Part shown: piece by piece, positions 15,950 through 19,065 of the stretch | How positions within the stretch are numbered: the stretch's first letter is position 1 | How the letters are laid out: every line of letters begins with the position of its first letter | Notes under the pieces: generated by a model | What the model saw: the letters and a program-made list of their open reading frames with translations, nothing else | Databases searched by the model: none | What the model was told of the DNA's origin: nothing | Translations under genes and position numbers: made by a program | From: Thalassovita mediterranea | GTDB lineage: Bacteria; Pseudomonadota; Alphaproteobacteria; Caulobacterales; Hyphomonadaceae | DNA length: 64,000 nucleotides | Assembly (NCBI GenBank): GCA_019448215.1 | Contig: CP080408.1 | Coordinates: forward strand, 2,728,001 to 2,792,000 | Direction of reading: 5' to 3'

Positions 15950-16462
15950 ATGTTGCGTAAACTTATCATCGCGTCGTCCATTATCGCCGGCACAGCTCTG
16001 AGTGCCGCTGCAGACACGGACAAGAATGTCCTCGGCTGGCTGGAGCATGTGCGGATTGCTGATCTCGATATCCAGCTTGATGCAAAGCTCGACACCGGCG
16101 CGAAGACATCGTCGATTCACGCCGAAATCCTTGATGCGCCAGCCCGCAAGGATTGGGACGACGAGGATGAAAGCCGCGACATCGTCTTCAAGGTAATCAA
16201 TGAGGATGGCGACGAACGCACGATCGAAACGGAGATCGTTCGCTGGGCCGCGATCAAGACAAAGCGTGGTGGGCTCATTCACCGCCCGGTTGTTGAACTT
16301 GAATTCTGTCTCGGCGGCCTTCTGATTGAAGACGAAGTCACACTCGCCGATAGAGGCAATTTCAACTACGAAACGCTGATCGGGCGGAACATGCTTGAAA
16401 AGGCGGACATCGTCGTTGACGCAAGTGAAATCTATACGAAGCGGGCACGGTGTTCTAAGTAG
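15950..16462 (+). CDS. Secreted RimB-like retropepsin-fold protein
   Basis: A 170-residue protein with a signal peptide (residues 1 to about 21, ending near SAAAD) and a single retropepsin-like domain. The aspartyl-protease triad-like motif KLDTGAKTSSIHA has its aspartate at D48, and the downstream strand ETLIGRNML completes the family pattern. Databases often call this family ATP-dependent zinc protease, but the DTGA motif points to an aspartic-peptidase fold. The signal peptide indicates periplasmic action. It is the first gene of a three-gene set with an inactive transglutaminase-7TM protein and an ATP-grasp ligase, and may remove or process whatever the ligase adds. Substrate unknown. Confidence 0.85.
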   Translation: MLRKLIIASSIIAGTALSAAADTDKNVLGWLEHVRIADLDIQLDAKLDTGAKTSSIHAEILDAPARKDWDDEDESRDIVFKVINEDGDERTIETEIVRWAAIKTKRGGLIHRPVVELEFCLGGLLIEDEVTLADRGNFNYETLIGRNMLEKADIVVDASEIYTKRARCSK

Positions 16463-16501
16463 TCGAGCCGCTGGGATTTAAGGCCGACTCGGAGCTGATT
16501 T

Positions 16502-18073
16502 TTGAAACGCACTCAATTGCTGATCATCGTGGGCGCGCTCATCGCGGCCGCGCTCGGCATCTTTTCGTACAAGGTCACGCGTCTCGGCTTTCCGGTCGTG
16601 CCGAATCTCGATTCCGACACATGGACCATCGAGGCAAAAATTTCTTTTCGCGGCCGCGGCGACCCGGTCACGCTTCGTCTCGCCCTGCCCAATTCCGAAG
16701 GCCAATTCACCGTTGTGGATGAGACGTTTGTCGCGTCTGGTTTCGGCGTTGAAACCGACTCGACGGAAGCCGGGCGCCAAGCCGTCTTTGAACGCCGCGC
16801 GCAGGATGGCAGCGCCGTCCTCTTCTATAGTGCGAAGCTGATCTCTGTTGACCAGCGCTACTCCAATGATGACCGCCCGACCCCAGAGGCGGTATCCGAT
16901 TATCGGCGCTCAGAGCGACGTAGAGCCATTCAGGAGAACGCCACACCCCTCCTCGTCGCTCTCGATTCCATTCTGACCGAGGCGCTCGAGAAGTCTGCAG
17001 GCGAGCGGAGTTTTATCACCCAACTGGCACGCCTGAGCGCTGATGAGAGCGATGACCGCATATCAACCATCATAGAAGGTGGGCCGCCTGAGATCTCGAA
17101 CGCCTCGGACCGGCTCGTTTTCCTGCTGAATGCTGCGGGCACGCCTGCCCGCCACGTTCAGGGGATCATCCTTGATACCGACACGCGCCAGGCGCCCCTC
17201 ACAACATGGGTGGAATACTGGCTGGGCGACACCTGGGTCAGCGCAAACGGAACGACGGCTGAACCGCTCAACGACGCACGCACCCTTCCGATCGTCTACG
17301 ACAGGCAACCCATCGTTTCGGGTGACGGTTTCAACCGCGTTGGCGTGTCCTGGTCCGTCGCCCGAAATTTCGAGAGCCAGCTCTCAAGGGCGATGGAACG
17401 TGGGTCTGAGTTTGCGCCCTGGGTGAATGCGACGTCCCTGCTCAGCCTGCCGATCGACCTTCAGCTTGTTTTCCGCGTGCTGCTGCTGATCCCGCTTGGG
17501 GCGCTAATCATCGTGATCCTCAAGCAGGTCATAGGCATGCCAGCCTTCGGCACATTCATGCCGGTTCTGATCGCGCTCGCTTTCCGCGAAACGCAGCTGC
17601 TCACGGGCATTATGCTGTTCACAGGTATCGTAGCCGTAGGTCTCTTGCTGCGCGCATACTTCAATCAGCTCCAGCTTCTGCTCGTGCCGCGCCTCGCTGC
17701 CGTGCTGATCATCGTCACCTTCGTGATGATGTTTATTGCACTCGCCGGCGAAGCAATGGGTATTCAGACGGGCCTTTCCATCTCGCTCTTCCCGCTTGTC
17801 ATCATCACCATGACCATCGAGCGCATGTCGCTCACCTGGGAAGAAGACGGTGCCAAGGAAGCCTTGAAGAAAGCGCTGGGTTCGCTCGCAGGAGCCATTC
17901 CGGCCTATTATATCCTGACCAGCGAATACATTGAGCACTTCGCCATCGTCTTCCCGGAGCTTCTGCTGATCGTCCTGGCGATGGTCCTGCTGCTCGGCCG
18001 CTACACTGGCTACAAGGTGACGGAGTATTTCCGCTTCAAGGTGCTCGCGAACGAAGGCAACAAGACCTCATGA
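16502..18073 (+). CDS. Inactive-transglutaminase protein fused to 7TM domain
   Basis: A 523-residue membrane protein. Residues 5-22 form one transmembrane anchor. Residues about 35-300 are an extracytoplasmic domain of the inactive-transglutaminase type: the fold's region around TPARHVQGIIL and TTWVEYWLGDTWV is present, but no catalytic Cys-His-Asp set is recognisable. Residues about 320-510 contain a run of hydrophobic helices consistent with seven transmembrane segments (for example IPLGALIIVILKQVIGMPAF, FGTFMPVLIAL). The start is TTG with GGAG six bases upstream; no ATG fits before the anchor helix. Its stop overlaps the ATG of the ATP-grasp gene (ATGA). Likely a membrane receptor, transporter or scaffold for that ligase's product. 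Confidence 0.85.
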   Translation: MKRTQLLIIVGALIAAALGIFSYKVTRLGFPVVPNLDSDTWTIEAKISFRGRGDPVTLRLALPNSEGQFTVVDETFVASGFGVETDSTEAGRQAVFERRAQDGSAVLFYSAKLISVDQRYSNDDRPTPEAVSDYRRSERRRAIQENATPLLVALDSILTEALEKSAGERSFITQLARLSADESDDRISTIIEGGPPEISNASDRLVFLLNAAGTPARHVQGIILDTDTRQAPLTTWVEYWLGDTWVSANGTTAEPLNDARTLPIVYDRQPIVSGDGFNRVGVSWSVARNFESQLSRAMERGSEFAPWVNATSLLSLPIDLQLVFRVLLLIPLGALIIVILKQVIGMPAFGTFMPVLIALAFRETQLLTGIMLFTGIVAVGLLLRAYFNQLQLLLVPRLAAVLIIVTFVMMFIALAGEAMGIQTGLSISLFPLVIITMTIERMSLTWEEDGAKEALKKALGSLAGAIPAYYILTSEYIEHFAIVFPELLLIVLAMVLLLGRYTGYKVTEYFRFKVLANEGNKTS

Positions 18074-19065
18074 TAGGTTTTGGTCCGATATCAAAACTGG
18101 CCAAATCGGGCGTCCTCGGCATCAACAGCCGCAACCTCGACTTCATCGCCGCCTATAATCCACGGCGCTTCTACCCGCTGGTCGATGACAAGGTCATCAC
18201 AAAGAAACTCGCCATTGAGGCGGGAGTCACCGTGCCAGAGCTGTACGGCGTTATCCGGTATGGCGGTGAGATGCATCTGCTCGAGAAGATCGCGGAGAAG
18301 CACCGCTCCTTCGTCGTGAAGCCTGCCAATGGATCGGGCGGCGGCGGTATCATGGTGTTCAATGGCGTTGCCAAGACCGGTCTGCGCCGCATGAACGGCC
18401 AGATCATGGCCTGGCCGGATATACGCTATCATCTCAACAACATGCTGAGCGGCATGTTCTCGATGGGTGACGGCTCTGATCAGGTCATGATCGAAGAGCG
18501 ACTGGTCCCACACTCAGCCTTCTCGAAGCTGGCTTTTGGCGGTGTGCCCGATGTCCGCGTGATCGTCTTTCGCGGCGTTCCAGTCATGGCCATGCTGCGT
18601 CTTCCAACTGCGGAGTCTGACGGCAAAGCGAACCTTCACCAGGGCGGTATCGGCGCTGGCATCGATCTGGTGACTGGTGTCACGACGCGGGGCGTACAGC
18701 ACAACGACTCAGTCGACGTGCACCCTGACTTCGAAACGCCAGTCCGCGACTTCCAGGTGCCTTCATGGGACGAAATTCTGGAACTCGCGAGCCGCCTCGG
18801 CCACCATATTGGTCTTGGCTATGTCGGTGTGGACATCGTGATCTGTGAGCATAAAGGCCCGACGCTGCTCGAGCTGAATGCCCGGCCAGGTATTGCGATC
18901 CAGACCGCAAACCTGAAGGGGCTGCGCCCCCTACTTTTGCCGATCCATAAACTGCCGTCCGTACCTGAGGATGTGCATGAGCGGATCGAAATTGCGCACG
19001 CCAACTGGAACGGCGAGTCCCTGGAGCGATTTCTCGCCCCAGGGGAAGAGATGCACCGCCACTAG
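18070..19065 (+). CDS. RimK-related ATP-grasp alpha-L-glutamate ligase-like protein
   Basis: A 331-residue ATP-grasp enzyme predicted to form an amide or peptide bond using ATP. It shows the glycine-rich ATP-covering loop FVVKPANGSGGGGIMV, an acidic segment VMIEERLVPH, and the metal-binding end LLELNARPGIAIQTAN. Relatives are labelled alpha-L-glutamate ligase-like because they resemble RimK, which adds glutamates to ribosomal protein S6, but their true substrate is not established. There is no signal peptide, so it should act in the cytoplasm. It is translationally coupled to the 7TM gene and converges on an SDR gene, sharing a CTAG stop palindrome. Confidence 0.87.
   Translation: MIGFGPISKLAKSGVLGINSRNLDFIAAYNPRRFYPLVDDKVITKKLAIEAGVTVPELYGVIRYGGEMHLLEKIAEKHRSFVVKPANGSGGGGIMVFNGVAKTGLRRMNGQIMAWPDIRYHLNNMLSGMFSMGDGSDQVMIEERLVPHSAFSKLAFGGVPDVRVIVFRGVPVMAMLRLPTAESDGKANLHQGGIGAGIDLVTGVTTRGVQHNDSVDVHPDFETPVRDFQVPSWDEILELASRLGHHIGLGYVGVDIVICEHKGPTLLELNARPGIAIQTANLKGLRPLLLPIHKLPSVPEDVHERIEIAHANWNGESLERFLAPGEEMHRH

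What the first reader, a model, noticed from the sequence alone, without database searches (positions are those of the whole stretch)
15950..19065. Retropepsin / inactive-transglutaminase-7TM / ATP-grasp operon of unknown substrate
Three genes encode a secreted DTGA aspartyl-protease-like protein, a membrane protein with an external inactive-transglutaminase domain plus about seven helices, and a RimK-like ligase. The last two share ATGA. From what I know of the families, this trio recurs in proteobacteria, has been noted in comparative genomics of amidoligases, and has no established product. My reading is that the cytoplasmic ligase makes an amino-acid-conjugated metabolite or peptide, the 7TM protein senses or moves it, and the periplasmic retropepsin trims it.
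Basis: partly seen in the sequence, partly recalled or inferred. Interest (0 to 1): 0.75.

Follow-up and report, generated by a model that had tools for sequence, protein, structure and literature searches.

The report
Rlo operon: likely periplasmic polyglutamate system
Three linked genes in a marine bacterium form the recently named Rlo operon, and comparison with relatives suggests that two of them make and move a glutamate chain across the inner membrane while the third cuts it in the periplasm.

Summary
In detail: linked genes at 15950-19065 encode a secreted DTGA retropepsin, an inactive-transglutaminase/7TM protein and a RimK-like ATP-grasp ligase. The nearest named relative is Henriciella marina. 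The trio is the rlo operon (RloA-RloB-RloC) described in P. aeruginosa in 2025. There RloA cuts runs of eight or more glutamates, and deleting rloB or rloC restores low-salt growth to a mutant without RloA proteases (PMC12239564). The jobs of RloB and RloC stay open there.

New here: RloB-RloC is a core with three partner sets. One has RloA and a dead transglutaminase, as in the window. One has a TPR protein plus a predicted outer-membrane barrel, with the transglutaminase triad intact in 6 of 6; in one genome RloB and RloC are a single protein. One has a barrel and a 7TM-only RloB (7 of 7). No secreted RloA was found in the 13 genomes of the last two sets, some of them drafts. I read RloBC as maker and carrier of a glutamate chain and RloA as its periplasmic cutter. 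Kinship of the 7TM part to PgsC is a lead, not shown.

The parts
15950..16462 (+). rloA: secreted retropepsin-like peptidase, 170 aa
   Evidence: PF05618 E 1.1e-26; RloA3 model 93.8 bits, below its cut-off of 210; PDB 9g59 E 1.4e-15
15950..16012 (+). signal-peptide-like N terminus (MLRKLIIASSIIAGTALSAAA)
   Evidence: read by eye from the translation; no predictor was run
16091..16102 (+). catalytic DTGA (D48)
   Evidence: translation; D in 66 of 66 aligned RloA rows, the window included
16502..18073 (+). rloB: inactive transglutaminase plus 7TM, 523 aa, TTG start
   Evidence: PF14402, PF14400; RloB model 323.7 bits, below cut-off 900; triad positions I/T/N
16568..17245 (+). transglutaminase-like part of RloB (residues 23-248), expected in the periplasm
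   Evidence: PF14400 23-190 and PF01841 184-248; side of the membrane taken from PMC12239564 section 5
17321..18046 (+). 7TM part of RloB (residues 274-515), with invariant G350-T-F-x-P354 and F430-P431
   Evidence: PF14402; invariant in the 44 rows of A3
18070..18073 (+). ATGA overlap of the rloB stop and the rloC start
   Evidence: sequence
18070..19065 (+). rloC: RimK-like ATP-grasp ligase without the RimK pre-ATP-grasp domain, 331 aa
   Evidence: TIGR02291 above cut-off; PF14397; K84, D161, R163, R177, N188, H190, D255, E268, N270 shared with three RimK rows

Best explanation
This is an alphaproteobacterial rlo operon. RloC, in the cytoplasm, uses ATP to join glutamate (possibly other acidic residues) into a short alpha-linked chain, as its relative RimK does. 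RloB passes the growing chain through its 7TM part to the periplasm; its dead transglutaminase domain may hold the chain or RloA. RloA, a secreted aspartic peptidase dimer, cuts the chain so that it does not build up. The chain would act as a charged periplasmic solute or coat that balances osmotic pressure and cell-wall tension. Shown here: the three genes, their linkage, the conserved ligase and protease sites and the lost transglutaminase triad. Shown by others in Pseudomonas: the protease cuts runs of eight or more glutamates, and loss of rloB or rloC restores low-salt growth to a mutant without the proteases. Inferred: that RloC makes the chain, that RloB carries it, and what the chain is for.
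For: (1) In P. aeruginosa, deleting rloB, rloC or both fully rescues low-salt growth of the triple protease mutant and partly rescues its other defects, as expected if RloBC make what RloA removes (PMC12239564 section 11). (2) RloA cuts 8E and 10E but not 6E or shorter (section 8). The paper's four pseudosymmetric contacts K46, R92, R114 and R137 are K46, R98, R112 and R135 in the window; the last two are arginine in 66 of 66 rows. [quoted passage not shown] (4) In this genome RloA is the only PF05618 protein found. The two PF08443 hits returned are glutathione synthase and a biotin carboxylase by NCBIfam, so no RimK or RimB was found that could feed or replace RloA. (5) RloB and RloC are fused in one 845-aa frame in G220. 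(6) In 13 genomes RloBC comes with envelope parts: a TPR gene in 6 of 6 of one type with a barrel after it in the 5 that stay on the contig, and a barrel before RloB in 7 of 7 of the other; none shows a secreted RloA. (7) In G402 the order is rimB-rimK-barrel-rloB-rloC. (8) In the RloC tree, with RimK as outgroup, the 45 rows of the window's type are one group, 100/98.
Against: I found no measurement of a product. Single rloB and rloC mutants have defects of their own in P. aeruginosa, so the rescue need not mean removal of a toxic chain alone. Of 13 RloA-less loci not at a contig end, only 3 genomes hold a secreted-looking RloA elsewhere, 4 hold only RimB and 6 hold no PF05618 hit, so RloBC seems to persist without the cutter; several are draft genomes. 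Other contacts of the paper are not all kept: K95 is A101 and K109 falls in a gap; K97 and R99 are K103 and K105. RloC is distant from RimK (long branch) and has stretches that RimK lacks, so its substrate may differ. Kinship of the 7TM part to PgsC is not established: hhalign P runs from 0.64 to 0.0052 over set-ups, over 30-72 columns and mostly in a shifted register. In a Pfam scan CapC was reached by 2 of 48 members at best E 2.7, and unrelated families did better, VanZ at 0.041. The order of the deepest RloC branches is weak (83/58).
Confidence: 0.5

Rival explanations
1. RloC, helped by RloB, glutamylates a periplasmic or envelope target (a protein, a lipid or a peptidoglycan precursor), and RloA removes the tail, as RimK and RimB do on a ribosomal protein.
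For: The RimK/RimB precedent (PMC11957791, passages). The Rlo paper leaves both options open and finds wall-linked phenotypes (PMC12239564 section 12). RloA cuts glutamate stretches inside proteins and at C termini in vitro.
Against: RloC is predicted to be cytoplasmic (PMC12239564 section 5), so the target would have to be modified before export. Barrel and TPR partners in the variant loci point to an exported product. No candidate target gene recurs beside the operon: the commonest further neighbour group is in 11 of 80 loci.
Confidence: 0.25
2. RloC adds amino acids to a sugar polymer or its lipid-linked precursor ('sugar-transfer associated ATP-grasp'), RloB flips it, and the barrels export it in the variant systems.
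For: RloC matches PF14397, ATPgrasp_ST, E 6.4e-80. Transposon hits in PA1766, PA1767 and PA1768 turned up in an exopolysaccharide suppressor screen (PMC7314104, one passage). TPR plus barrel is typical of polysaccharide secretion (recalled).
Against: No glycosyltransferase match among 10 neighbour ORFs scanned from 7 barrel-type loci at E 0.001 or better; 3 of the 10 had no match at all. It does not explain a peptidase with a taste for glutamate runs in the operon.
Confidence: 0.12
3. RloB is a sensor or receptor: the 7TM part reads a peptide made by RloC and trimmed by RloA and signals to the cell.
For: G220 has an AraC-type regulator gene beside the fusion.
Against: The 7TM part is fused to the ligase in G220 and stands beside barrels without the transglutaminase domain in 7 of 7 genomes of one family; no further neighbour group is in more than 11 of 80 loci of the window's type.
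Confidence: 0.08

Closest known systems
rlo operon of Pseudomonas aeruginosa (RloA, RloB, RloC; Lormand et al. 2025, PMC12239564)
   Same: Same three families, same order, signal-peptide-like start, DTGA, cysteine pair (C120, C168), four of the residues that bind the glutamate chain, inactive transglutaminase plus 7TM, ATP-grasp ligase.
   Different: One RloA instead of three paralogues, and no RimB or RimK found in this genome, whereas the paper says that most RloABC organisms also have RimBK; scores under the NCBIfam cut-offs for RloA and RloB.
RimB-RimK, ribosomal S6 glutamylation and poly-alpha-glutamate synthesis
   Same: Retropepsin plus ATP-grasp glutamate ligase; shared catalytic residues.
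   Different: RloA has a signal-like start; RloC lacks the RimK pre-ATP-grasp domain; RimBK has no RloB.
PgsB-PgsC poly-gamma-glutamate synthase
   Same: Proposed job (ligase plus small membrane protein making a glutamate chain). Against a PgsC profile, 48 RloB 7TM rows score a median 4.75 bits and the 183 scored of 189 membrane-protein decoys a median -1.4.
   Different: The ligase is ATP-grasp, not the Mur-ligase type of PgsB (type recalled); PF14102 is not met; homology unproven.
Exopolysaccharide secretion by TPR protein plus outer-membrane barrel (AlgK/AlgE, PgaA, BcsC; recalled)
   Same: The variant RloBC loci have a TPR protein and/or a predicted barrel next to the synthase-like genes.
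   Different: Not found in the window; no sugar-transfer genes among the neighbours scanned.

Membership tests
rlo operon (RloABC) | Secreted retropepsin with DTGA and N-terminal signal | tested here: met
   PF05618, D48 and DTGA; the signal was read by eye, no predictor run
rlo operon (RloABC) | Cysteine pair of periplasmic RloA | tested here: met
   C120 and C168; each of the two columns is Cys in 62 of 66 RloA rows
rlo operon (RloABC) | Basic residues that bind the glutamate chain (K46, R92, R114, R137 in P. aeruginosa) | tested here: met
   K, R, R, R in the window, mapped through P. psychrophila RloA on the assumption of the same spacing as in P. aeruginosa; the asymmetric contacts are only partly kept
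rlo operon (RloABC) | RloB with inactive transglutaminase and 7TM | tested here: met
   PF14400, PF14402; triad I/T/N
rlo operon (RloABC) | ATP-grasp RloC after RloB, order A-B-C | tested here: met
rlo operon (RloABC) | NCBIfam RloA, RloA2, RloA3 and RloB models at their cut-offs | tested here: not met
   83.3, 83.0 and 93.8 bits against 280, 250 and 210; 323.7 against 900. I read these cut-offs as made for the Pseudomonas forms; the window is then a distant orthologue, not the Pseudomonas form
rlo operon (RloABC) | Role in osmotic tolerance, wall and biofilm | not testable with these tools
   needs mutants
RimB-RimK | Cytosolic protease; RimK pre-ATP-grasp domain (PF18030) | tested here: not met
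   Signal-like N terminus; no PF18030 match and no such stretch in the alignment
PgsBCA poly-gamma-glutamate synthase | PF14102 (PgsC) membrane subunit | tested here: not met
   No PF14102 hit in this genome; the window's 7TM part gave no PF14102 match
PgsBCA poly-gamma-glutamate synthase | 7TM part homologous to PgsC below family level | tested here: inconclusive
   Above decoys, but hhalign P 0.64-0.0052, mostly in a shifted register, and better weak Pfam matches elsewhere; no structure could be predicted
TPR/outer-membrane-barrel export system | TPR protein and barrel in the locus | tested here: not met
   No ORF of the whole window matches the variant TPR or barrel proteins; they are present in relatives' loci

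The most novel reading that the evidence does not exclude
RloB-RloC is a separate class of amino-acid-polymer machine: an ATP-grasp ligase coupled to a PgsC-like membrane translocator. Its older form spans the whole envelope with a TPR protein, an outer-membrane barrel and a working transglutaminase-fold domain, and exports the polymer. The Rlo form, as in the window, is a derivative that lost the outer-membrane exit, let the transglutaminase die and took a secreted retropepsin to dispose of a polymer now kept in the periplasm.
Probability: 0.33. Interest if true: 0.85.

Novelty: new member of a known kind. Interest (0 to 1): 0.6.

Why it matters
The Rlo genes affect osmotic survival, antibiotic sensitivity and biofilms in Pseudomonas, yet I found nothing in print on what RloB and RloC do, or on the barrel types (paper searches: in the held open library only). 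The three partner sets give a concrete, testable answer: RloBC builds and moves a chain, and what lies beyond it (cutter or outer-membrane exit) decides whether the chain stays or leaves. Henriciella would be a clean test bed, since RloA is the only PF05618 protein found in the window's genome and no RimK was found there.

Tried and rejected
PgsC as a proven homologue: rejected as proof. Profile-profile comparison gave P 0.093, 0.023 and 0.64, 0.022 local and 0.0052 global and 0.012, in a register that matches the first RloB motif with the second PgsC motif in all but the weakest. Pfam's CapC model was reached by 2 of 48 members at best E 2.7, while VanZ (0.041), TgpA_N (0.21, 2 members) and others did better. 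The decoy test favours PgsC, but the 48 rows are relatives and count as about one observation, and the rows were cut to the 7TM part while decoys were whole ORFs. PF14102 searches to widen the PgsC profile gave 6 of 299, 5 of 78, 0 of 45 and 2 of 247 genomes. One of the six, a match under the cut-off in G481, looks like a haem A synthase by eye and was dropped.

Viral contigs: no relatives of PgsC or RloB. PDB: nothing for RloB or the PgsC repeats. With TPR and barrel queries, loci of the window's type gave no barrel and two TPR matches: the one in G275 (L012/L025), next to RloC, is a TPR-methyltransferase by eye; the one in L146 lies at the edge of its locus and was not followed. CapC in the lipocone paper is 'CapCone', unrelated (PMC12419801, passages). 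A papain-fold survey mention was unrelated (PMC10318531, passages).

Notes on counts: the 80 loci are the best 80 of 574, so they lean to close relatives. The 43 loci come; one search gave loci for the best 30 of its 48 matches. One of the 43 (L001/L015) has RloB at a contig end with no RloC found. In one search, 20 of 129 rows have a gap at the Cys column, 1 at His and 1 at Asp. The tree used 45 of the window-type rows, including RloA-less ones, and 6 of 7 type-3 rows (L225 is cut by its contig). Barrel calls rest on weak Pfam matches to barrel families: best OMP_b-brl E 3.6e-6 (27.7 bits, cut-off 28.7), the others above E 0.001, and L206 none; kinship among the type-2 barrels is firmer (E 4.6e-9 to 1.7e-10 against the G220 barrel).
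Full report
What is there. Three genes on the + strand, 15950-16462, 16502-18073 and 18070-19065, encode a secreted retropepsin-like protein, an inactive-transglutaminase/7TM protein (TTG start) and an ATP-grasp ligase; the last two share ATGA. Pfam and NCBIfam place them in PF05618, PF14400/PF14402 and PF14397/TIGR02291. A genome scan gave Henriciella marina as the nearest named relative, 96% identical over RloB; that the window is from Henriciella or close to it is inferred from this.

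What is known. The trio is the rlo operon of Lormand et al. 2025 (PMC12239564; I read the abstract and sections 5, 7, 8, 11 and 12). They show that RloA cuts runs of eight or more glutamates, that three RloA paralogues protect P. aeruginosa in low salt, and that removing rloB or rloC fully rescues low-salt growth and partly rescues the other defects of the triple protease mutant; rloB and rloC single mutants also have milder defects. They do not say what RloB and RloC do. Other held papers report screen hits: vesicle production in Shewanella vesiculosa (PMC12096838, passages) and an exopolysaccharide suppressor screen (PMC7314104, one passage); two more were seen in a search listing only. The 2009 amidoligase survey is not held; I cannot say from a call what it holds on the trio.

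Linkage. In the best 80 of 574 relatives, RloC is beside RloB in 80 of 80, one of them by eye, and RloA just upstream in 64; of the other 16, 3 begin at a contig end. In 43 further loci, 39 hold all three, 3 hold B and C, and one holds B alone at a contig end. After A, B and C, the commonest neighbour group is in 11 of 80 loci. The family is thinly spread: PF14402 is in 14 of 289 genomes of the class and 48 of 299 of the phylum.

Sites. RloA in the window keeps the catalytic D48 and, at K46, R98, R112 and R135, the residues matching K46, R92, R114 and R137 of P. aeruginosa; the last two are arginine in 66 of 66 rows, and the two cysteine columns are each filled in 62 of 66 (positions carried over through P. 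psychrophila). Of the less conserved contacts, K95 is an alanine in the window and K109 falls in a gap. RloC keeps K84, D161, R163, R177, N188, H190, D255, E268 and N270, all shared with three RimK rows, but lacks RimK's first domain. RloB has lost the C-H-D triad. The genome search returned one PF05618 protein and two PF08443 proteins, which NCBIfam names glutathione synthase and biotin carboxylase; that search did not return RloC itself, whose PF08443 match is weak (28.7 bits), but a true RimK scores far higher (222.8 bits for the RimK of G402). So this cell seems to have RloABC without RimBK.

New comparative result. RloB-RloC is a core that changes partners. Type 1, as in the window: dead transglutaminase, usually with RloA. 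Type 2: RloB with an intact C-H-D triad, RloC, then a TPR protein and a predicted outer-membrane barrel, in five genomes of family f171 (5 of 78 in its order) and in G220 of the window's own class; the TPR gene is seen in 6 of 6 and the barrel in the 5 that do not run off the contig. In G220, RloB and RloC are one 845-aa protein; the RloC part begins at the LGINSRN motif without the usual RloC start, so this looks like a real fusion, not a reading slip. Type 3: a predicted barrel, a 7TM-only RloB and RloC, in 7 of 7 positive genomes of family f14 (7 of 199 searched are positive). The triad is intact in 6 of 6 type-2 rows and in none of the other 123 rows, of which one has no transglutaminase part and some have gaps there. 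The TPR proteins of f171 match that of G220 at E 7.2e-16 to 4.1e-22 and the barrels at 4.6e-9 to 1.7e-10; type-3 barrels are at best faintly related to these (E 0.0013-0.42 in a search among the query proteins themselves). No ORF of the window matches the variant TPR or barrel proteins.

Retropepsins in these genomes. Of the 13 type-2 and type-3 genomes, none shows a secreted RloA: 8 have only a RimB-like protein beside or fused to RimK, and 5 have no PF05618 hit (secretion judged by eye; four of the 13 are under 90% complete). In G402 rimB and rimK sit directly upstream of the barrel, RloB and RloC. Of the 13 type-1 loci without RloA nearby and not cut by a contig end, 3 genomes have a secreted-looking RloA elsewhere, 4 only RimB and 6 no hit. 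That last group counts against any claim that RloA is always needed.

Tree. With six RimK rows as outgroup, 57 RloC rows hold together (100/100), the 45 type-1 rows are one group (100/98), and G220 groups with six type-3 rows (98/92); the five f171 rows branch first, but the next fork is weak (83/58) and the RimK branch is long. So the barrel types look older and the window's type derived, with that caution.

PgsC question. The RloB motif GTFMPVLIA and the second motif FPxVI resemble, to my eye, two motifs of PgsC, the membrane part of poly-gamma-glutamate synthase. Against a PgsC profile, 48 RloB 7TM rows score a median of 4.75 bits and 71% exceed the 95th percentile of the 183 scored of 189 membrane ORFs; the best RloB has 11.7, the best decoy 9.0. 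I treat it as a lead.

Reading. The simplest account of the genetics, the protease's taste for glutamate runs, the ligase's kinship to a known poly-alpha-glutamate maker (PMC11957791, passages), the fusion and the outer-membrane partners is that RloC makes and RloB carries a glutamate chain into the periplasm, where RloA cuts it. In types 2 and 3 the chain would leave through the barrel. The triad pattern suggests that the transglutaminase fold once processed the chain and that RloA took over after it died. Rivals are glutamylation of an envelope target, amino-acid dressing of a sugar polymer, and sensing. No glycosyltransferase appeared among 10 neighbour ORFs of seven barrel-type loci.

Literature limits. 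I found no paper on the barrel types or on RloBC as a synthase in searches of the held open library; most subscription papers and all preprints are outside it.

Noticed in passing
L058, L060-L062, L160; L208:4481-7723: Proteins of about 1,081-1,091 aa with two PgsC repeats and a long further part; in L208 next to an 836-aa protein without Pfam match. By eye no PgsB gene was recognised nearby.
   Followed up: partly
L159 (G745): By eye, a classical-looking pgsB-pgsC pair followed by a third membrane-anchored protein in a genome of another phylum.
   Followed up: no
L207:2665-6919: rimB, rimK, a predicted barrel, 7TM-only rloB and rloC in one run: the RimBK and RloBC systems side by side.
   Followed up: partly
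L234:469-1953: RimB-like and RimK-like matches in a single 495-aa open frame in G220, the genome that also fuses RloB and RloC.
   Followed up: no
L015:6445-7836: RloB at a contig end with no RloC found after it; the next ORF faces it.
   Followed up: no
L027:6397-7518, L207:5080-6234, L223, L225, L227: Five of seven type-3 RloB frames run on for roughly 100 residues after the 7TM part (L224 and L226 do not); role unknown.
   Followed up: no
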